Shown here: one piece after another, positions 9,469 through 64,000 of the stretch | Layout: every line of letters starts with the position of its first letter | How positions within the stretch are numbered: position 1 is the first letter of the stretch | NCBI RefSeq assembly: GCF_019891175.1 | Contig: NZ_CP072600.1 | Location: 6,262,001 to 6,326,000 of the forward strand | From: Leptothermofonsia sichuanensis E412 | GTDB taxonomy: Bacteria > Cyanobacteriota > Cyanobacteriia > Leptolyngbyales > Leptolyngbyaceae | Direction of reading: 5' to 3' | DNA: 64,000 nucleotides | Position numbers and translations under genes: made by a program | The notes under the pieces: model-generated | The model's database searches: none | What the model was told of the DNA's origin: nothing | The model's input: the letters and a program-made list of their open reading frames with translations, nothing else

Positions 9469-10656
9469 ATGATCAATCGACGTTCTTTCCTGATCGGAAC
9501 CACCAGCTTAACGCTGAGTCATCTGCTAACAGGCTGTGCAGGGCAGAATCATCCTACGTTAAATGTTCGAATGCTGAATGGTTCCATCCCACCCCAGATT
9601 CTCAATCTATTCCATAGACATTTACAACAATCGTCCAAACAGGCAACACTGAATTTTTCGCCAGAATTACAGCTACAATCTCTTTTCTCTCTACTCCAAA
9701 GCTGGAAGCAGAAAACGAACCAGCCTCAGTCTCCTAAGGGCATTTTTGACTGGGTTCCATTTCCAGGAAAGTCTCAACAGCAGACGATTCCTGACCTGGT
9801 TTCTCTGGGTGATTACTGGTTAAGTAATGCCATTCGGCAAGGGCTGATTCAATCGTTTGAGCAGGCTCAGCTAAAAAATTGGGATGGACTGATGGAAGAT
9901 TCGCGGTGGAAAAACCTGGTGACTCGTAACCAATCCGGCGAGCCTGACCCGGAAGGGAAAATCTGGGCGCTTCCCTACCGCTGGGGAAGCACCCTCATTG
10001 CCTATCGCCGGGATATTTTCAGAGATAGGGGGTTGCAGCCTCCAACAGACTGGGGCGATCTCTGGCGACCAGAACTGCGGCGTCAGATTTCTCTACTCGA
10101 CCAGCCCCGTGAGGTGATTGGTCTGACGCTGAAAAAACTGGGCAAGTCTTACAACACCTCAGACCTGAATGCCGTGCCCAATTTGCAGGCTGAGTTGGAT
10201 GCCTTGCAGCCGCAGGTAAAGCTTTATAGTTCTGACCACTATTTACAACCACTGATATTGGGAGATACCTGGCTTGCGGTTGGCTGGTCCGCAGATGTGC
10301 TGCGGTTGATGCAGCGGAATCAGACCATTCATGCGATCGTCCCCCAATCCGGGACTGCCTTATGGGCAGATCTCTGGGTTCGCCCAACCGCCAGTAAAAC
10401 TGACAATTTAAGCCTGGTGATGGATTGGATTAAATTTTGCTGGCAACCGCCGATTGCGACCCAACTGTCTATGCTCAGTCAAGCCGCTTCCCCAATCTTT
10501 TTACAAGAAGACCCCAACCGCTTACCAGAAGACCTGCGAGCGAATCGATTATTGCTGCCCGATCAACAAATCCTCAAGGCAAGTGAATTTCTTAATCCCT
10601 TACCTGAACCAGCTATTAAGGACTACCAGGCAAAATGGAAGCGCCTCCGCCAGTAG
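9469..10656 (+). CDS. Periplasmic solute-binding lipoprotein (spermidine/putrescine-type)
   Basis: About 395 residues from the ATG at 9469; another ATG 15 bases upstream is possible. The N-terminus reads NRRSFLIGTTSLTLSHLLTGCAG, a twin-arginine-like signal with a lipobox cysteine. The rest resembles family-1 extracellular solute-binding proteins of the polyamine type (KIWALPYRWGSTLIAYRRD, DWGDLWRPEL, LAVGWSADVLRLM). No permease or ATPase for it is adjacent, so the transporter must be encoded elsewhere or it is an orphan. Its last 41 bases overlap the convergent gene on the minus strand. Confidence 0.85.
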   Translation: MINRRSFLIGTTSLTLSHLLTGCAGQNHPTLNVRMLNGSIPPQILNLFHRHLQQSSKQATLNFSPELQLQSLFSLLQSWKQKTNQPQSPKGIFDWVPFPGKSQQQTIPDLVSLGDYWLSNAIRQGLIQSFEQAQLKNWDGLMEDSRWKNLVTRNQSGEPDPEGKIWALPYRWGSTLIAYRRDIFRDRGLQPPTDWGDLWRPELRRQISLLDQPREVIGLTLKKLGKSYNTSDLNAVPNLQAELDALQPQVKLYSSDHYLQPLILGDTWLAVGWSADVLRLMQRNQTIHAIVPQSGTALWADLWVRPTASKTDNLSLVMDWIKFCWQPPIATQLSMLSQAASPIFLQEDPNRLPEDLRANRLLLPDQQILKASEFLNPLPEPAIKDYQAKWKRLRQ

Positions 10657-11461
10657 GACGACCTCGCAGACTGGAACTGCCATTGTAGTCAAGCAGAGTA
10701 GCACAGTTCTGGGTCTGGTCAGGCTGAACAAACGGAGAATATTTCACAGATGGGGTATTGGCAAGAACTCTGGCGAATTGTGCTCTGGATTGCCCTGGCG
10801 CGGCGACTGGTCTGGCACTGAAGTCACAGGTATAGGCACCCAGAAAGTTTGCCCGGTTGTCAAAAACACGGGTGTTGTATCCGTAATCTTTACCAACGGA
10901 GCCAAATTTGTGGATAAAGCTGTAGCGTTCGAGGTAGTCGAGTGAACTCCAGAGCTGACGGTTGACCACCAGATCAATGCGTCCGGGCTGGGTGACCTGA
11001 TCGGGAGGATGGGCAATCCAATTTTCCATTAATTTGTTGCCAAACCGTTCTCGGGCGGCGTATTGTTCCCAGATCCACCACAGGCTGGGAATCGTTAATC
11101 CAGTTTCAGAAATCGTGGTGGCGGTAACCACGGAGGGAGGTGTATGACCCGGTTTCAGCAACGTCAGGTCAAGGGGTTCTGCGGCAGGTTTCAATTCAGC
11201 CATCCCCTCTAATTCAGGGGGTTCTGTTCCCTGGGCGATCGCCCCTGTGGCTGCCAGCCCTGCCCAACAGCACAATAGAAGCAGAATATCCCAGACAACC
11301 TTGCTGGCGTACTCTCTGGGAGAATGGGACCGGGAACAGGGGGGCAGGCTAGAGGAGGTAGCGTGTGTCGTTCCACTGACTTGGCTGGACAGAAACGCTG
11401 GCTCGCTTGCGCCAGGTAATTTCTCCACGGGCTGTCTTAATAAGTGCATGTTCAACTGCAT
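10616..11461 (-). CDS. Exported protein of unknown function
   Basis: 281 residues from the ATG at 11461. A hydrophobic stretch VVWDILLLLCCWAGLAATGAIA near residues 55-76 looks like a signal peptide followed by an acidic mature start (QGTEPPELEG). The mature part has a compact region (PSLWWIWEQYAARERFGNKL, LERYSFIHKFG, FLGAYTCDF) that I believe is conserved in cyanobacterial unknown proteins. The true start is unclear: beginning at 11461 overlaps the upstream comFB gene by 113 bases, and no good ribosome-binding site was seen for ATG 11461, ATG 11449 or an in-frame GTG downstream. The 3' end overlaps the convergent binding-protein gene by 41 bases. Confidence 0.65.
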   Translation of the reverse strand: MQLNMHLLRQPVEKLPGASEPAFLSSQVSGTTHATSSSLPPCSRSHSPREYASKVVWDILLLLCCWAGLAATGAIAQGTEPPELEGMAELKPAAEPLDLTLLKPGHTPPSVVTATTISETGLTIPSLWWIWEQYAARERFGNKLMENWIAHPPDQVTQPGRIDLVVNRQLWSSLDYLERYSFIHKFGSVGKDYGYNTRVFDNRANFLGAYTCDFSARPVAAPGQSRAQFARVLANTPSVKYSPFVQPDQTQNCATLLDYNGSSSLRGRPTGGGASILPGSP

Positions 11462-54821: not shown

Positions 54822-57800
54822 ATGCTGAAGTCGCGAGTTTATCCCTCTCTGCTTCTGGTAACGATTTCCCTCTCTGCTGCCCTTTCTGCTCAGGCACAAA
54901 TCGTTCCAGCATCTGCTGACTCTACCAATACCCTGGTAAACCAGACAGGTAACACCTTTTTCATTACTGGCGGCACCCAAACTGGTGCAAACCTGTTTCA
55001 TAGCTTTCAACAATTGGGATTGACCCAGGGACAAATTGCCCACTTTCTTTCCCCTCCATCTATCCAAACCATTTTGGGTCGGGTCGTTGGTGGGGAAGCA
55101 TCGGTGATTGATGGGCTAATCCGGGTAACGGGCAGTCAGGCCAATCTGTTTTTGATGAATCCTGCTGGGATTGTGTTTGGGCAAAATGCCCGACTGGATG
55201 TACCTGGCTCGTTTACAGCAACAACTGCCAGTGCGATCGGGATAGGCAATGGTTGGTTTAATGCAGTGGGGAGTAATGACTATGCGGCGCTGGTTGGTAC
55301 TCCTGACCACTTTGCCATGACTGCGCCCCAATCGGGGGCGATTATCAATATGGGCAATCTCGCTCCAGGACAGGGGCAAAGTTTAACCCTGGTGGGCGGT
55401 ACAGTGATCAACACAGGTACCCTCTCTGCTCCCGGTGGAACCGTTGTGGTTGCTACCGTACCAGGGGAAGCGCTGGTACGCATCAGCCAGGAGGGGAGCT
55501 TATTGAGTCTGGAACTCCCAGTAACGAGCAGGATGGCACCGAACCCACTGCCATTTAGCCCCCAGACCTTACCCCAACTGTTAACAGGGCATGGGTTGGG
55601 GAATGCAACAGGTGTGACGGTTGAAGACGGCGTCGTGTCACTAACGGGTGCGGGCATCCGGGTCGAAAATGGGGATGTGGTCACGAAAGGGATAACGGCT
55701 CAAACAGCCTCCCTCTCCTCCAGCAACAATCTGACTCTGGTCGAAAGTCAGGTACAAACTACATTCGATCTCAATCTGCTGGCAGCCAACACTGTATGGG
55801 GGCGGGATTCGGCAACGGGGGCGATCGCACTTCAGGCAGGCAGAAATTTAACCATTCAGGGTGATCAGGCTGTGGATATTTTTGCCCTGAATCATCCTGA
55901 GAGCCGATTGATCTCAGGAAACAATATGGTATTGCGTTCTGCCAGCACGATTCAGGGAGATGCTCACTACATGACAGGGGGCGATCTCCGGTTTGAGCAG
56001 TTGAATGGAAATGCAGGCAGTGTCTCCAGCTCTTATGACCCAATCGTTCTAGCGGTTGGGGATGTGACCTTAGGGGACTATACAGGGGCTTCTCTGCATG
56101 TTCTGGCAGGGGGCAGGGTGACAATGGGAAACGTCTACATTACAAGTGGTGGAACCGGGACAACTACAATCAATCCAGACAACTTCACTTCCTACAATGG
56201 CAATCCGGCAAATACCTTTGCAACCCTGGCGGCGATCGTCCGCTCGGATAGAACACCTCTGTACGTCAACATAACCCCGACCTTAGATGGAACAAATACG
56301 ATTCAGCGAGTTCCGCAGCCCACCGATCAACTGATCATTGACGGACGTAATGCCACTCTAGATGTGCGGGCGGGCATCAATTGGAGTGCATTAGGCGGGT
56401 TGCCTGCAGAAATTGTGATTCCACCGGGTTCGGTTACGCCTGTTTCCACATCGACTGCCGCCCCCGTAAGCAGTGATATCACAATCAGCAGTATTCAGAT
56501 CGGCAATACAAGTCCCAGTCAATCGGGAACTGTTTTATTAACCAACCAGTATTACCCCAACACAGCCCTGACAGGAGGGGCTATCCAGGTGACTGGCGAA
56601 GTGCCCGGTGGTGTTATTGGCAATCCCAGTATTCTGTGTCAGATATGTTCTAACCTGCCACCTGCAGGTCAATTGGGAGCAATTGTGATTGATTCCCGTT
56701 CCACGATCGCTCTGGGCAACGTTCAGGATTTCACCGGGGTGAATGTTGACTTGAGGGCAGTCAGTGACCTCACAACGGGACGGCTGCGCGTGTCAGGTAC
56801 AGGTAGTGGAAGCTCTTCAATCCCCATTCGAACTTCTGTTATCCTCAACTCCACTACTGGCAATATCCAGGTCAGTAGTATTGATGCGGGGGCGAATGGC
56901 ATAGATATCAGAGCTGCTGGATTATTTCAAGCAACCAGCGTATTTGATGCGACCTTTCTCTTCAACGCCCAACCAGGTCCGATCGTGCCATCCAGTCCCG
57001 GAACGCCCCTGGGAAATTTTCTGGTGAGCAGAGGAATCAGCACCCCACCCGATCGGACGATACTCATTTTTGATAACTCCCTCGGTCAAAATGTAGGGCT
57101 ACTGGCAAGAACCAGCACAAGTGGGCTAACACCCATCACAATTCAGTCTGGAGATGGTTCTCGGCTGCTGATTAACGAATCTTTTCCAGCAGGAGCGGGT
57201 ATTAATTTCGTTGTGGTGCGTGGGGGAGATGCAGCATTTTATAGCGGTCCTCAGGTGGCAGGACGCCTTGTTCCAGGTAACGATCCCTATGTCAGCAAAG
57301 TCCCCCCATCTCCCAGGGAGGGCGGCATTTACGAAGCCATTACACCCGCTAACTTTCCCTTTGAAACTGAAGGACTGGTTTATGTGAATGAGCAGTATTC
57401 TGCCCTAATCTTTGGTTCACCTGGTTTTCCAGCAGATGCCAGCGGCATTGCCGGTGCAATTACATTCTCTGGAATTGATGCTACTCTTTATGGGGTTATC
57501 CAGAATCGAGCATTTCCAGCAATCATCAACCCCAATGGCGGTGTGACAGAGAGAGGCGACACAGGTGGCGGTGTGACAGGAGGTAGCGGCATACCTCTGG
57601 GTGGGATAGAGAGTAGCAGCATACCTCTGGATAGGATAGAGGGTGAAACCATTGTTGGTAGAGCGGATGGGCAAAATATCCAGCGTCAATTGACGAATCA
57701 GCGCCAGGACTCTGCCTGTAACCCATCAGCTACAGGAGTCATTAACCCCAATAACTCAGTAACCCGTTCGGAAGGTAATGTTTTGGGGACAGGGAGTATT

Positions 57801-57872
57801 GCCTTTCCTTGTGCCCCTGCAGAAGACAACGCGCAGATACTGAAAATCTTAAATGAACCTTCCAGCCGATGA
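54822..57872 (+). CDS. Filamentous haemagglutinin-type secreted protein (two-partner secretion)
   Basis: 1016 residues. Signal peptide LLLVTISLSAALSAQA; then the TPS N-terminal domain: NLFHSFQQLGLTQGQIAHFL, VVGGEASVIDGLIRVTGSQA and FLMNPAGIVFGQNARLDVPG with the NPAGI signature. The body has beta-helix-like repeats rich in N, G, T and S, and the C-terminal third has a low-complexity stretch with GGVTERGDTGGGVTGGSG and SSIPLDRIEGE. Two-partner exoproteins need an outer-membrane TpsB transporter, which is not in this window. Possible adhesin or cell-contact protein. Confidence 0.92.
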   Translation: MLKSRVYPSLLLVTISLSAALSAQAQIVPASADSTNTLVNQTGNTFFITGGTQTGANLFHSFQQLGLTQGQIAHFLSPPSIQTILGRVVGGEASVIDGLIRVTGSQANLFLMNPAGIVFGQNARLDVPGSFTATTASAIGIGNGWFNAVGSNDYAALVGTPDHFAMTAPQSGAIINMGNLAPGQGQSLTLVGGTVINTGTLSAPGGTVVVATVPGEALVRISQEGSLLSLELPVTSRMAPNPLPFSPQTLPQLLTGHGLGNATGVTVEDGVVSLTGAGIRVENGDVVTKGITAQTASLSSSNNLTLVESQVQTTFDLNLLAANTVWGRDSATGAIALQAGRNLTIQGDQAVDIFALNHPESRLISGNNMVLRSASTIQGDAHYMTGGDLRFEQLNGNAGSVSSSYDPIVLAVGDVTLGDYTGASLHVLAGGRVTMGNVYITSGGTGTTTINPDNFTSYNGNPANTFATLAAIVRSDRTPLYVNITPTLDGTNTIQRVPQPTDQLIIDGRNATLDVRAGINWSALGGLPAEIVIPPGSVTPVSTSTAAPVSSDITISSIQIGNTSPSQSGTVLLTNQYYPNTALTGGAIQVTGEVPGGVIGNPSILCQICSNLPPAGQLGAIVIDSRSTIALGNVQDFTGVNVDLRAVSDLTTGRLRVSGTGSGSSSIPIRTSVILNSTTGNIQVSSIDAGANGIDIRAAGLFQATSVFDATFLFNAQPGPIVPSSPGTPLGNFLVSRGISTPPDRTILIFDNSLGQNVGLLARTSTSGLTPITIQSGDGSRLLINESFPAGAGINFVVVRGGDAAFYSGPQVAGRLVPGNDPYVSKVPPSPREGGIYEAITPANFPFETEGLVYVNEQYSALIFGSPGFPADASGIAGAITFSGIDATLYGVIQNRAFPAIINPNGGVTERGDTGGGVTGGSGIPLGGIESSSIPLDRIEGETIVGRADGQNIQRQLTNQRQDSACNPSATGVINPNNSVTRSEGNVLGTGSIAFPCAPAEDNAQILKILNEPSSR

Positions 57873-59042
57873 CATCTATCGCTTAAGGAAATTTCCAGTT
57901 CAGAATTTACCTTTCGTATCCGTAAAGAGGGTTGGAGAGGCCCTCAGGAGGATTGAGGCAGTTCGGGAAGCGGCAGTAAAGAAGGCGCAGGCAAGCCTTG
58001 ACGCCTGGCACGACAAGCATCGGCGAGATAATCGAGGACAGGGCGATTTTGTTTGTCGCCGCAGCGTTGTTACGACGGTCATCATGCGTCCGACAAACAA
58101 ACGGCCTGCCTCACTTTGGGAACCATAGTCATCCTCCTTGTTGCTTCGTAATTGCTCAACTGGGGGTTGACAAGGCGAGAAAGAACACTAGTAGTCTGTC
58201 AACTTTGTTTTGATGGATAGATTAGGGGAGAATGGAGAGGCAGATACCTCTTACCAACCATGCCCCAAAAGAGATACATCGTAGCCCTTAGCTGTGAAGA
58301 GCGGGAGACTTTAGAAAGTCTGACAACAACCGGAAAAACATCCGTTTATAAACTCAATCATGCTCGAATTTTGCTGAAAGCTGACATCAACCAGGAAGGC
58401 GGCGGTTGGCGGGATCAAGATATCAGTGATGCACTCGATATTAGCGTATCTACGATTGAACGAGTCCGGCAACGCTTTGTTGCACAGAGTTTAGAGGCTG
58501 CCTTAGGGCGTCAAACTCCAAGTCGAACCAAGCCCCGCTTACTCGATGGCGAACAAGAAGCGCATTTGATTGCGCTGGCGTGTGCCGAGACTCCTGAAGG
58601 ACAAGGGAAATGGAGCGTTCGCCTGTTAGCAGACCAACTGGTTGAGTTGGGATATGTAGAGAGCATTTCGCATGAAACCGTGCGGCAAACGCTGAAAAAA
58701 ACGAACTCAAACCCTGGTTGCAGGAATGCTGGGTAATTCCGCCGAAGTCCAATGGCGAGTTTGTTTACTACATGGAAGATGTTTTGAGCGTTTATACACG
58801 CCCTTATGACCCGCGCTACCCGGTCGTTTGTTTCGATGAAACCAGCAAACAATTAGTCCTCGAAACGCAAGTTCCCCTCCCCCCCCAACCCGGTCAACCG
58901 AAGCGCTATGACTATGAATATGAACGCAATGGGGTCTGTAATCTCTTCATGATTTCTGAACCCTTAGCTGGATGGCGGCATGTAGAAGTCACTGAACGGC
59001 GCACCAAACAAGACTATGCCAAACAAATGAAATATCTGGTGG

Positions 59043-60107
59043 CTAAGTACAGGACAAAAGTTTGAGATTGTCCAAGAACTCATCTAATTTATGGTCAAGA
59101 TTAACGAGTAGGTTGTGCAAGTAATCTAAGCCATATCGGAATAGACTCTGGGCTTTGCGCCCATGGGACTTGAGTTGAATCGTTTTGTGCGCCTGCCGCC
59201 ACACCCCCGTTCGCATCACCCAACATAACGCCAATGTGAGGAGCGCAAAGAGCTTGCGGACTCGGTAGTCATCAATAAAATGGGTCGCTTCGAGGCAGAA
59301 GCCCCGAGTTTTGAACGCACCGAACAGGGTTTCTAAATTCCACCGCAGGGCGTAATCTTTGAGGGCTGAATGGGGTGAATGGTTGGTGACCAAAATCAGT
59401 AATTCCTGGGTGTCAAGCCGCAGACCAACGACATACACCCAATGTCCCCACACTTGACGGCGTTTGCGTAAAATCTTGGTTTCACCCGCTTTGAGATCGG
59501 CAAAGAGGACGCGGCCATTCAGGGCTTTGCTGCCATCACTGAGCGTTTCAGTTTCGCGAATCCGCCCCCGAAACGGGATTGGCTCATCTTCGAGCAAATA
59601 GCCAATCCACTCCCGCCCAACAAATTCGCGGTCGCTCGTCAGGCACCGCAGGCGGACATCCTCGCCAAAAATCGTGAAGAATTCGTTGAGCAAATCGATG
59701 CGCTCTTGGGTGTTGGAATTGCCGCGGTTGTCCAGCATCAGAAACACCACCGGAAAGGAAATACCCTGATGGCAAATGCCCAGGGTGAGAATGTTGAAAA
59801 CGCTACCGCCAAAGCTCCATTCGGTGCGGTCTATGGCGAGCACCCAAGGCTGCGGGATCCCCATCAGGCAGACCACGGCACGGGCAATCGCCGCATAATC
59901 GAGATCAAAGTCGCTAAAGAAGCGCTGGAGACGCTTGTAGTTCGACGGAATTTGGGCGGAACCACAAAAGCTAGCAGCCAATTCGCTCAGATTCACCGTA
60001 CGGGTTCGTAGCAGGGCGATCAGAAATTGAGCCACAAATGCCAGCCGCGCACCATGCCAACCGAGGAGGGGCTGCAAAACTTGGCGAAATTCGGTAATCT
60101 GTTGCAT
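59043..60107 (-). CDS. IS4-family transposase
   Basis: 354 residues, intact. DDE residues: Asp in VLAIDRTEWSFGG, Asp in CLTSDREFVGREW, and the Y-(2)-R-(3)-E-(6)-K signature in YALRWNLETLFGAFKTRG, diagnostic of the IS4 family. The frame is uninterrupted, so the element may still be active. Its TAG stop falls on the terminal inverted repeat. Confidence 0.95.
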   Translation of the reverse strand: MQQITEFRQVLQPLLGWHGARLAFVAQFLIALLRTRTVNLSELAASFCGSAQIPSNYKRLQRFFSDFDLDYAAIARAVVCLMGIPQPWVLAIDRTEWSFGGSVFNILTLGICHQGISFPVVFLMLDNRGNSNTQERIDLLNEFFTIFGEDVRLRCLTSDREFVGREWIGYLLEDEPIPFRGRIRETETLSDGSKALNGRVLFADLKAGETKILRKRRQVWGHWVYVVGLRLDTQELLILVTNHSPHSALKDYALRWNLETLFGAFKTRGFCLEATHFIDDYRVRKLFALLTLALCWVMRTGVWRQAHKTIQLKSHGRKAQSLFRYGLDYLHNLLVNLDHKLDEFLDNLKLLSCT

Positions 60108-60207
60108 GGGGGTCTCGTTGGTTTGTTGTTATTCCTAGGAAACCCCTTCCCGCCTAAGTTTTCAACCCTCTGTGTGCCTCAATTGACAAGTTTTGTCCTG
60201 TACTGAG
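59043..60207 (-). mobile_element. IS4-family element with 9-bp target duplication
   Basis: 1165 bases. Terminal inverted repeats: left CTAAGTACAGGACAAAAG, right (inverted) CTCAGTACAGGACAAAAC. Flanked by the direct repeat ATCTGGTGG at 59034-59042 and 60208-60216. The transposase is on the minus strand and its TAG stop is formed by the first three bases of the element. Confidence 0.93.
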
Positions 60208-60593
60208 ATCTGGTGGATGTGCGTTACCCCGATGCCGAATGGATTACCATCGTGCATGACCAACTCAATATTCATGACCCATCTGCCTTGTATGAGACGT
60301 TTGCACCTCAAGAAGCCAAGCGGATTCTAGACAAATTAGAGATTCATTACACACCAAAACATGGCAGTTGGCTTAACATGGCAGAAATTGAACTCAGTGT
60401 TTTAGCCCGTCAGTGCTTGGATCGTCGCATCCCAGATCAAGATACGTTGAAACGGGAAATTGCTGCTTGGGAAGAACGCAGAAATGATCAATCTCGCACC
60501 ATTGATTGGCAATTTACGACTGAAGATGCTCGCATCAAACTTAAGCGACTCTATCCCTCAATTCTTTCTTGACAAGCTACTAGAGTTAAAGGC

Positions 60594-61943
60594 ATGAAAG
60601 AGCTTCCAGACCTCAAGCAACTCACAGACTCTGATAAGGACAGGCTGATCCAGACACTGTGGGATGAGCTGCAAAAGTTGCAACAAAAGAAGCCGAAAAA
60701 GACATCCAAGAATTCCAGTTTACCCCCTGCTCAAGGATTCAAAGCAGCAGTTAGCGAGCCTTCTGGCTCCCAAGAGATAAATCGAAGTGCGAGTGTGGGA
60801 CGCTGTGGTGGTGGGCGTAAGCTGACTCCGAATCCCGACCAAATTATCCGCGCCGAAGTGAACAGGTGCAAAACTTGTGGTGTGAGTCTGTCTGGAACCC
60901 TTCAGCAATTGCTGCAACGCTATGAAAAAGTGGAGATTCCACCGATTCGCCCGGTTGTGACTCAAGTGGAACGGTATGGTTGCACCTGTCCGGGTTGTGG
61001 AGAAGTTCAATTGGCTCCAGTTCCGGTGGGACTAGAACCCGGCAGTCCCTTCGGCGATGGGGTGGCGGCCTTAGTCACGACGTTGCGCTACGGTCATGCA
61101 ATCAGCTATGCGCGGCTGAGTCAACTGATGTCGGAGGTGTTCAATTTAGCGATTTCCGAAGGTGCTTTGGCAAGTCTCTTTCAACGAGTCAAAACGCAAT
61201 TAGACCCATCGATTGCGGCGATTGTGCAGCGCTTACGCAGTTCCCGACTGGTCGGCAGCGATGAAACCAGTGCGCGGCTGAGAGGCAAGACGGTATGGGA
61301 ATGGGTGTTTCAAAATGCTCAAGTCTGCTTGCATGTGATTCGCCCGTCCCGTGGGGCAGAGGTGATTGAGCACGTGATGGCAGGGCATCGTCCTGAGATT
61401 TGGGTGTCGGATTTGTTCAGCGCTCAAAAGAAACATCCTGCGTCAGATTGGCAAGTCTGCTTAGCCCATCAGTTGCGCGATTGTCAGTATGGCATTGATG
61501 CCGGGGATACGATCTTTTCGCCTCGGATGAAGCGGTTAGTCTTACGCGCTTGTGCTTGGCATCGACGCTGGGAGCAATTGTCTGCTTCGACGCAATATCA
61601 ATATCGCTGCCGGATCAACCGAGAATTAGACCAAGCACTCGCCCTGTGTCCGACTCAAGCCGATGGCATTCGGCTGCAAACGCGCTACCGAAACTTGCGG
61701 GAGCATCTGTTTCTATTTTTGGCAGACACAACGATTGCGCCGACCAATAATGCCAGTGAACAGGCGCTGCGGATGAGTGTGATTTTTCGCAAGGTGACCA
61801 ATGGGTTTCGCTCCGAGTGGGGCAAAGATTTGTTCGCCGATATTCGTTCTGTGGTGAATACGGGTAAGCGTCAAGGGCTTTCTGCTTTTGAGTCCATTTC
61901 TGCGGCCTTAAACCCTCACCAATCCCTATTCCCGCTGAGTTGA
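60594..61943 (+). CDS. IS66-family transposase (TnpC type)
   Basis: 449 residues, uninterrupted. N-terminal helical region with KKPKKTSKNSSLPPAQGFK, zinc-finger cysteines (CKTCGVSL, CTCPGCGEVQ), then the catalytic core with DE in VGSDETSARLRGKTVWEWVF, VSDLFSAQKK and the TNNASEQALRMSVIFRKVTNG end, as in IS66 TnpC proteins. No TnpA/TnpB accessory genes. Located 13 bases after the IS630 element. Confidence 0.92.
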   Translation: MKELPDLKQLTDSDKDRLIQTLWDELQKLQQKKPKKTSKNSSLPPAQGFKAAVSEPSGSQEINRSASVGRCGGGRKLTPNPDQIIRAEVNRCKTCGVSLSGTLQQLLQRYEKVEIPPIRPVVTQVERYGCTCPGCGEVQLAPVPVGLEPGSPFGDGVAALVTTLRYGHAISYARLSQLMSEVFNLAISEGALASLFQRVKTQLDPSIAAIVQRLRSSRLVGSDETSARLRGKTVWEWVFQNAQVCLHVIRPSRGAEVIEHVMAGHRPEIWVSDLFSAQKKHPASDWQVCLAHQLRDCQYGIDAGDTIFSPRMKRLVLRACAWHRRWEQLSASTQYQYRCRINRELDQALALCPTQADGIRLQTRYRNLREHLFLFLADTTIAPTNNASEQALRMSVIFRKVTNGFRSEWGKDLFADIRSVVNTGKRQGLSAFESISAALNPHQSLFPLS

Positions 61944-62170
61944 GCAATTACTATTAATGACACTGGCAATCTGGGGAGCCGCAAATACATGAAATTCGTC
62001 AAAAATGAACAGGTCAAAATCCTTGTCAATTCGACCCCACAGTTTATCGGGGCTATCTTCTGGGAGTAAATAGGCTCCCCGGTGGAGATAATGAAAGATA
62101 TCAGGGTTAGTCAACAGCACTTCTGATTGGCTGGTGCGAGTGGCGATCGCAGATCCTTTCCTGAGTCCTT

Positions 62171-63028
62171 GGTAATGTTCTAGGTTTGTTGTTTTCCTTA
62201 CGAAGAACTGGTTAGATGGAGAAGTCAGTAGTTGCGGGAACTCAAGTTATGGTATTAGAACCAATTCACTGCCCTGTGTGTGATGGGATTGAGGTGATCA
62301 AACACGGCACAACACCAGACGGCAAACAGCGCTACTTTTGTCAAAACTCAGGATGCCATCGGCGCACCTTTATTTTGCAATACACCTATCAAGGGTATCT
62401 GCCTGAAGTCAAGCAACAAATCAGCGATATGGCAATGAATGGGAGTGGGATTCGAGACACTGCCCGTGTCCTTCACATTAGTCCAACGACGGTGATTGAG
62501 GAATTAAAAAAAAAGATCGTCAACTCAAAGCCGTGAATGAACTCAAACTGGCTGAGTTGGAACCCGCTCAAAGCATCGTAAAGCTTTGCCAGGGGGAAGA
62601 TACAGAGGCAGAAGCCGATGAAATGTGGAGTTTTGTCCAGTCTAAAGCCCAGCAACGTTGGTTATGGCATGCAATTGACCATCACAGTGGAAAAATATTA
62701 GCTTATGTGTTGGCGACGCATCAAGATGAAGCATTCCTCCAACTCAAAGCGTTATTAGAACCGTTTGGAATTATGCAGTTTTACACAGATGGTTGGGGAA
62801 CCTATGAGCGGCAGCTTGACCCAAGTCTTCATACCGTTGGCAAACAGAACACGCAGAAGATTGAGCGTAAGCATTTGACTTTACGCACGCGCTTGAAGCG
62901 ATTAGCTCGCAAAACTATTTGCTTTTCTAAGTCCATTCTGATGCATGACATTGTGATTGGGCTATTTATTAACCGTTATGAGTTTGGTTTTGCTATCTAA
63001 CCTAAAACAACAAGTCTAGAACACGACC
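62171..63028 (+). mobile_element. IS1-family element with 8-bp target duplication
   Basis: 858 bases. Inverted repeats: left GGTAATGTTCTAGGTTTG, right (inverted) GGTCGTGTTCTAGACTTG. Flanking direct repeat GAGTCCTT at 62163-62170 and 63029-63036. Contains the two-frame transposase. Confidence 0.92.
62216..63000 (+). CDS. IS1-family transposase InsA-InsB (programmed -1 frameshift)
   Basis: InsA-like frame 62216-62536 with a zinc finger (CPVCDGIEVIKHGTTPDGKQ, YFCQNSGCHRRTF) and InsB-like frame ending 63000 with DEMWSFVQSKAQQRW and YTDGWGTYE. A run of nine A at 62506-62514 allows the -1 frame change, giving EELKKKDRQLKAVNELK. The catalytic residues expected of IS1 (DE and H/R) appear in the second frame. 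It looks intact. Confidence 0.9.
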
Positions 63029-63406
63029 GAGTCCTTCACTTTCGGCATAAATTTCCAATTCTGCACCGCTCAATCGAGCCACACGCGGATTATGGATCGG
63101 CTTAAATTTAGCAATGTAATCTTTTATTTGAGCTTCCTGATCCCGTGCCAATTCATTGGTTGGATACAGCCCAATCGCGGAACCTTCTCCTTGTAACAGG
63201 TGCAAATAAGCTGCCAGGCTCTTCCCATCTCCTGTCATGGCTACGTTGAATACTACATCCACGGCAGGATCGCGCAGTGCCTTCAATGTTTCCGCTTGAT
63301 GCCAGGAAAGTCTCCATCCTTCTGGTATCTGGATGCCCTCTGGAATGCCATCAACCGGAGATGAATAAACTGGCTTGAGCGTAATGGGATAGTTCGTCAT
63401 CGCCAT

Positions 63407-63485: not shown

Positions 63486-64000
63486 ATGGGTCGTCGTGGT
63501 CAGTCCATCACACTATCAGTCTCAGAATCAGACAAAGCCCAACTTGAGGCGCTTGCCCTGGAATTTGGGATGACCTGGGGCGATCGCCCGAATATCTCCA
63601 GGCTGGTAGAAGCGATCGCCCGGCGTCAGTTAGTGATTGCCCCCAATCACGATTGGACGAAGGGGCGGGTTCAGGCACTCAACCGTGCTCGGATTGCCTT
63701 AATTGATGCAGGAGAGATTGAGCAGGCAGTGGCGATCGCTCAGTTGCTGCTTGAACGCAGCGAGATCTCCCTTCCCCTGCGAGCCGAACTGGAGCAGTTT
63801 ATTGCCAGACCTGCCCTGCCCTGGCGCATCGAGGTTGAGCGGTACATTCACCGCCAACAACCGTTTCAGTTGTCCTATCAGGATGCTGCCGAACGGGTCT
63901 GGCAATTCACAATTCGCTATGCCGAAATTGTGGTCCATGAAGACCGTCAATATCTGGACTGTTGGTGTGAAGAAACGGAGGGCAATCAGGATATCTCAGA
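63486..64000 (+). CDS. WYL-domain transcriptional regulator of the type I-D locus (3' end outside window)
   Basis: 171 residues visible, open to the window end. Starts MGRRGQSITLSVSESDKAQL, then ALEFGMTWGDRPNISRLVEA (ribbon/helix DNA-binding-like segment) and PFQLSYQDAAERVWQFTIRY before the WYL domain continues. It strongly resembles the divergent regulator next to cas3 of cyanobacterial type I-D loci (Synechocystis Sll7009 type), there a repressor of the adjacent array. Frame is intact so far. The remaining cas genes are absent in this window. Confidence 0.88.
   Translation, partial: MGRRGQSITLSVSESDKAQLEALALEFGMTWGDRPNISRLVEAIARRQLVIAPNHDWTKGRVQALNRARIALIDAGEIEQAVAIAQLLLERSEISLPLRAELEQFIARPALPWRIEVERYIHRQQPFQLSYQDAAERVWQFTIRYAEIVVHEDRQYLDCWCEETEGNQDIS

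What the first reader, a model, noticed from the sequence alone, without database searches (positions are those of the whole stretch)
57873..58147. IS66 flanks do not match: the rest of the type I-D operon is missing
Right of the IS66 element is the middle of cas3; left of it is DNA following the haemagglutinin gene, with no cas3-like sequence, and the 8-base flanks differ (GTTGCTTC versus TATTAATG). A simple insertion would leave cas3 on both sides. A deletion or recombination between IS66 copies probably removed or moved cas10d, csc1, csc2, cas6, cas1 and cas2.
Basis: partly seen in the sequence, partly recalled or inferred. Interest (0 to 1): 0.65.

Follow-up and report, generated by a model that had tools for sequence, protein, structure and literature searches.

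The report
Transposon-cut remnant of a CRISPR operon
A cyanobacterium has lost most of one of its CRISPR immune systems where a jumping gene sits in the middle of a CRISPR gene, an ordinary kind of genome decay that leaves other CRISPR loci in place.

Summary
The IS66 element (58148-61951) is flanked by GTTGCTTC and TATTAATG. To its right is the 5' end of type I-D cas3', cut after codon 194 of about 725. To its left there is no cas sequence. One correction: the left-hand DNA is mainly a truncated, frameshifted end of a second, different IS66-family element (57916-58128), then 19 unassigned bases, so the left boundary is itself a scar.

The genome is one 6.43-Mb contig. The rest of cas3', cas10d and csc2 were not found in it, while all 6 relatives used as controls have cas10d and csc2. 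None of its three Cas1 genes passes the I-D Cas1 cut-off. csc1, cas6 and cas4 were not searched genome-wide.

The missing target duplication is meaningful: 6 of 9 two-ended copies of this IS66 have perfect 8-bp duplications. No other copy carries the reciprocal flanks, so deletion fits better than inversion. Recombination between two copies cannot be told from an IS-adjacent deletion, and misassembly was not tested with reads.

IS inactivation of cas genes is published; this is a well-documented new case. A two-repeat relict array about 3.15 Mb away may be the system's last trace.

The parts
54822..57872 (+). Intact ORF, TPS-domain (filamentous haemagglutinin-type) protein, 1016 aa; left neighbour
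   Evidence: ORF; PF05860, 6.1e-43
57916..58128 (-). Remnant of a second, different IS66-family element (IS66-B): terminal repeat and C-terminal end of its transposase gene, frameshifted
   Evidence: the terminus GTATCCGTA is fixed by three copies in two relatives
58129..58147 (.). 19 bp of unassigned DNA between the IS66-B remnant and the left end of the IS66 element
   Evidence: not aligned to IS66-B; only in the window's own loci among those fetched by then, up to 2 mismatches
58140..58147 (.). Left 8-bp flank GTTGCTTC, not duplicated on the right
58148..61951 (+). IS66-family element (IS66-A), 3804 bp with nested elements; 7 uninterrupted full copies elsewhere are 1411-1413 bp; transposase ORF 60594-61943
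58191..60580 (+). IS630-family element nested in IS66-A near its left end; TA duplicated; its transposase is split by the IS4 element
59043..60207 (-). IS4-family element nested in the IS630 element, with 9-bp duplication ATCTGGTGG
61952..61959 (.). Right 8-bp flank TATTAATG, which lies within cas3'
61952..62170 (-). cas3' segment up to residue 194 (relative's numbering), in frame, 3' end cut by IS66-A
62171..63028 (+). IS1-family element inserted in cas3' with 8-bp duplication GAGTCCTT (62163-62170 and 63029-63036)
63029..63406 (-). 5' part of type I-D cas3' (helicase)
   Evidence: TIGR03158, 90 bits, cut-off 69.1; Cas3d
63486..64000 (+). Divergent WYL-type gene next to I-D cas3'; open frame continues beyond the window, 289 aa in all
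   Evidence: (WYL 18.2 bits, below cut-off 21.8)

Best explanation
This is the relic of a type I-D CRISPR-Cas locus, cut away by an IS66-associated deletion. Shown: only the WYL gene and the first 194 codons of cas3' remain here, an IS1 sits in that fragment with a matching duplication, and the IS66 element has unlike flanks. Also shown: the rest of cas3', cas10d and csc2 were not found in the single-contig genome, and the left flank adjoins a truncated second IS66-family element. Inferred: an IS66 copy entered cas3' at CATTAATA; a second copy lay to the left, or the cas3' copy attacked DNA to its left; recombination between two copies, or an IS-adjacent deletion, removed the cas3' 3' end and the rest of the operon, with one copy of each target duplication.
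For: Unlike flanks at true ends. 6 of 9 two-ended copies have perfect 8-bp duplications, so the assay works; the other 3, this one included, lack them, and 5 one-ended copies exist, so rearrangement at this element recurs. The IS630, IS4 and IS1 in and beside it all show matching duplications. The cas3' remainder, cas10d and csc2 were not found in this genome, with the 6 other genomes positive. In 74 of 75 I-D loci with at least 7.5 kb of downstream DNA, cas3' C-terminus, cas10d and csc2 are present. No left or right end elsewhere has the reciprocal flank.
Against: No second copy remains to prove recombination. 19 bp between the IS66-B remnant and IS66-A are unexplained, so more than one event probably shaped the left side. 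No reads were available to rule out a wrong join through a multicopy repeat. csc1, cas6 and cas4 were not searched genome-wide. The controls were chosen among genomes already known to have I-D cas3', so they test the search, not how often the operon is lost.
Confidence: 0.83

Rival explanations
1. Inversion or translocation between IS66-A copies moved the operon elsewhere in the chromosome rather than deleting it.
For: Flanks differ, which an exchange would also produce. One 8-bp flank (AAAAAAAC) is shared by a left end and a right end 2.64 Mb apart, so large exchanges may have happened.
Against: None of 11 right-end flanks is GTTGCTTC and none of 12 left-end flanks is TATTAATG. The cas3' remainder, cas10d and csc2 were not found in the genome.
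Confidence: 0.05
2. Assembly artefact: a repeat-collapsed join through IS66 copies placed the haemagglutinin side next to the cas3' side.
For: 12 left ends and 11 right ends of this element exist, the classic setting for a wrong join.
Against: The genome is one 6.43-Mb contig, 100% complete and 0.41% contaminated. A misjoin alone would leave the rest of cas3' and cas10d elsewhere in the assembly, and they were not found. Of the copies that keep a left end, only the window's has the nested IS630 and IS4 elements at that place.
Confidence: 0.06
3. The I-D operon was already lost by another route, and IS66-A inserted later at the scar, its duplication then being eroded.
For: The left side is a composite scar with a 19-bp unassigned stretch.
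Against: cas3' runs in frame exactly to the element's end and its 8-bp flank is cas3' sequence, so the right boundary of the loss coincides with the IS end to the base.
Confidence: 0.06

Closest known systems
IS inactivation of CRISPR-Cas loci (PMC10359306, Nat Commun 2023; start of abstract, introduction and passages seen)
   Same: IS elements inserted in cas genes in natural genomes; that paper reports up to 28 insertions recognised with the help of target duplications. The IS1 in this cas3' is such a case.
   Different: The IS66 here has no duplication and most of the operon is gone, so a screen by target duplications would miss the IS66 event. The main text as held has 0 occurrences of IS66, cyanobacteri- and deletion and of type I-D.
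Type I-D CRISPR-Cas of cyanobacteria (same-genus relative L037, from cas3' to cas6 where its contig ends; operon with cas1, cas2 and array in L039)
   Same: WYL gene divergent from cas3'; cas3' 77% and about 86-92% identical over the two remaining segments.
   Different: The cas3' 3' end, cas10d and csc2 were not found; interference by this system should be impossible (inference).
I-D locus of Nostoc favosum CHAB5714 (L119)
   Same: Also lost most of cas3' and cas10d and all detectable csc2.
   Different: Part of csc1, cas6 and part of cas4 remain. Four ORFs at the gap were scanned with Pfam and none matched a transposase family; the junction was not analysed further.

Membership tests
[quoted passage not shown]
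   TIGR03158 90 bits over cut-off 69.1, but only profile positions 1-94 of 357 in the 5' fragment; the gene is truncated
[quoted passage not shown]
   not found in G000, found in the 6 other genomes of the same call, one being the query's source;
[quoted passage not shown]
   not found in G000, found in the 6 other genomes, one being the query's source
[quoted passage not shown]
   no whole-genome search was left; no match in the own-genome stretches compared
[quoted passage not shown]
   three Cas1 genes in the genome, all below TIGR04093 cut-off 385 (294.8, 242.5, 277.1 bits), 32-35% identical to a relative's I-D Cas1
[quoted passage not shown]
   a pattern that fits 11 of 11 arrays at relatives' I-D loci hits two single places here; one is a two-repeat mini-array
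IS66 family | IS66 transposase with DDE domain | tested here: met
   NF033517 255 bits over 180; PF03050
IS66 family | terminal inverted repeats beginning GTAA and 8-bp target duplication (recalled as typical) | tested here: met
   for the element: inverted repeats present and 6 of 9 two-ended copies with 8-bp duplication; the window copy itself lacks the duplication
Simple IS transposition into cas3' | matching target duplication and cas3' on both sides | tested here: not met
   for IS66-A. Met for the IS1 in the same gene

The most novel reading that the evidence does not exclude
The loss was a staged dismantling by IS elements of one of several coexisting CRISPR systems: IS1 silenced cas3', IS66 then excised the operon (the order is not shown), and a single-spacer array with an I-D-like repeat about 3.15 Mb away is the last surviving I-D memory. 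A near-identical copy of the same IS1 lies between cas1 and cas2 of a second CRISPR locus, which would make this one host in which the same IS elements erode several CRISPR loci.
Probability: 0.2. Interest if true: 0.25.

Novelty: new member of a known kind. Interest (0 to 1): 0.12.

Why it matters
It is a well-documented case of CRISPR loss at an IS66 boundary in a single-contig genome. It shows that catalogues of IS-inactivated CRISPR loci that rely on target duplications will miss IS-bounded deletions. The host keeps a type I-B gene set with a long array and two more Cas1 loci with arrays, so the loss need not have cost it adaptive immunity. Biologically it is ordinary genome decay.

Tried and rejected
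Rejected: that 57873-58128 encodes a protein on the plus strand (the 91-aa ORF matched no family; the stretch is the reverse of an IS66 transposase end). Rejected: that the cas3' remainder lies beside another IS66 copy (which held 1.5 kb on each side of the places found). Rejected: reciprocal inversion.

Led nowhere: the 19-bp stretch (up to 2 mismatches, only the window's own loci among those fetched by then); the single spacer of the mini-array in viral contigs (0 exact matches); Rfam on the mini-array (no match; the array of L039 gave one hit below its gathering score); haemagglutinin or psbA near I-D loci of other cyanobacteria (0 of 80 loci with up to 10 kb on each side; the potassium-channel-like gene matched in 1 of 80); PMC4886054 (passages seen), not relevant. 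The family search TIGR03174 gave nothing anywhere, controls included, so I used protein queries, later with control genomes. Weak tblastn matches in L174 to csc2 (E 0.01, 37 aa) and cas3' (E 0.08, 27 aa) were taken as chance.

Dropped before counts: 5 of 80 loci with under 7.5 kb downstream were set aside; csc1 covered at least half in 73 of 75 there. In the counts of 12 left and 11 right ends one diverged pattern match (2941294) was left out.

Mended on rechecking, with no change of odds: the size of fetched stretches (166 kb), the wording on the type I-B locus (no cas6 recognised; an ORF I had thought might be one is Uma2), and what the paper's main text contains.

Full report
Setting. The window is 6262001-6326000 of a single-contig 6,426,061-bp genome, 100% complete and 0.41% contaminated. 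Its close relatives are cyanobacteria: the same-genus genome G001 has the I-D locus on a 10,988-bp contig, the same length as a contig of the record titled Leptolyngbyaceae cyanobacterium HOT.MB2.61. That the two are the same is inference.

The element. The IS66-family element runs from 58148 to 61951. Its ends GTAATTGCTCAACT and AGTTGAGCAATTAC recur in the other copies. The transposase passes the IS66 model (255 bits, cut-off 180). Seven uninterrupted full copies elsewhere are 1411-1413 bp, and the 1373-bp right part of the window copy is 99.6-100% identical to them. Nested inside are an IS630-family element (58191-60580, TA duplicated) and, within that, an IS4-family element (59043-60207, 9-bp duplication ATCTGGTGG).

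Right side. The minus strand carries type I-D cas3' (TIGR03158 over its cut-off). An IS1-family element (62171-63028) sits in it with an 8-bp duplication, GAGTCCTT, and both remaining cas3' segments read without stops. cas3' then runs in frame to the last base before IS66 and ends after residue 194 in the numbering of the 725-residue relative. The divergent WYL-type gene upstream is open for 289 codons.

Left side. The stretch 57916-58128 is the terminal part of a different IS66-family element on the minus strand. It is 91-92% identical to two copies in relative G015 and about 70% to one in G180. Their common end, GTATCCGTA, fixes its border at 57916. Its reading frame is shifted relative to G015 by a 4-base insertion. 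Of 291 genomes searched with 57700-58147, 4 matched, this genome included; one of the 4 matched only 30 bases in the haemagglutinin part. Between that remnant and IS66-A lie 19 bp that match nothing else fetched by then. The left flank GTTGCTTC therefore lies in a scar and says little about ancestral gene order.

Is the flank mismatch meaningful? The genome has 12 left ends and 11 right ends of IS66-A (one diverged hit left out). Nine copies have both ends in place, one of them interrupted besides the window's. Six of the nine have identical 8-bp flanks; the copies at 3,791,615, at 6,157,806 and in the window do not. Three left ends and two right ends stand alone. So simple transposition of this element leaves an 8-bp duplication, and mismatched ends are a recurring sign of rearrangement in this genome. 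GTTGCTTC is at no right end and TATTAATG at no left end, which argues against a reciprocal inversion or exchange.

Is the operon gone? A full-length cas3' from the relative finds only the two window segments. cas10d from two relatives finds nothing in this genome, and csc2 finds nothing. In some searches the 6 other genomes were all positive; they were picked because one search had shown I-D cas3' in them, and in each call one of the 6 is the query's own source. The 1.5-kb flanks of the other IS66-A ends gave no match to I-D proteins. Three Cas1 genes exist. One is a Cas4-Cas1 fusion in a type I-B (MYXAN, Cmx8) locus with Cas3, Cas8b, Cas7 and Cas5 and at least 121 repeats; no cas6 was recognised there. 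One is fused to a reverse transcriptase, with 24 repeats. One has at least 104 repeats beside it. Effector genes of the last two were not sought. None of the three passes the I-D Cas1 cut-off.

How unusual is it? I-D cas3' itself is patchy: 18 of 58 genomes, this one included, match its 5' part, two of them weakly at 42% identity. Of 80 I-D cas3' loci from public genomes (the best 80 of 91), 75 hold at least 7.5 kb downstream. In 74 of those 75 the cas3' C-terminus, cas10d and csc2 are present (csc1 in 73). The exception for the first three is Nostoc favosum CHAB5714 (L119), another decayed locus.

A possible last trace. A degenerate pattern that fits 11 of 11 arrays found in relatives' I-D loci, and none of the genome's three other repeats, occurs at only two places in the genome. 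One of them, 3,174,803, is a pair of 37-bp repeats 74 bp apart. Its repeat matches the I-D repeat of L083 at 22 of 24 positions at the 3' end and those of L084 and L041 at 21. The six other I-D repeats compared score only 15-16, no better than the genome's own three other repeats at 12-16. No I-D gene is convincingly matched in the 20 kb fetched around it; its ORFs were not scanned for other families. I take this as suggestive only.

Mechanism. The base-exact end of cas3' at the IS end makes IS66-A the likely agent of the right boundary. Two routes remain: homologous recombination between two directly repeated copies, or a deletion made by the element itself into neighbouring DNA. Both leave one full copy with unlike flanks, and the DNA that would tell them apart is gone. 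A wrong join by the assembler was not tested with reads, but would not explain the absence of the other genes.

Comparison with print. A screen of complete genomes found up to 28 IS insertions in CRISPR-Cas loci, recognised with the help of target duplications, and showed in E. coli that IS insertion inactivates cas genes (PMC10359306; start of abstract, introduction and passages seen). Type I-D Cas3' is the helicase and Cas10d carries the nuclease (PMC10212523 and PMC11903412, passages seen), so this system should no longer act (inference). The listings of searches showed no paper on IS66 deletion of an I-D operon; that is not proof of absence. I file it as a new member of a known kind.

Noticed in passing
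L169 1501-1611 (genome 3,174,803 region): Two-repeat mini-array with a 37-bp I-D-like repeat and one spacer; no I-D gene convincingly matched in the 20 kb around it.
   Followed up: partly
L079 about 10598-11454 (genome about 5,867,597-5,868,453): A 99.9% identical copy of the IS1 lies between cas1 and cas2 of another CRISPR locus; its 8-bp flanks as printed do not match.
   Followed up: partly
L069 and L054 (genome 5,544,075 and 2,904,710): A left end and a right end of IS66-A, 2.64 Mb apart, share the flank AAAAAAAC: possible large rearrangement, though the sequence is of low complexity.
   Followed up: no
L119 10001-14154: Nostoc favosum CHAB5714 I-D locus has lost most of cas3' and cas10d and all detectable csc2; a DUF5615 ORF and a 2OG-oxygenase-like ORF lie in or near the gap.
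   Followed up: partly
L081 9024-11237 (genome about 1,170,023): Reverse transcriptase-Cas1 fusion next to Cas2 and a 24-repeat array; its effector genes were not sought.
   Followed up: no
G005 contig C54: Relative G005 has a second, divergent csc2 (37% identical) and a cas3'-like match (32%) besides its I-D operon on C51, perhaps a second I-D variant.
   Followed up: no
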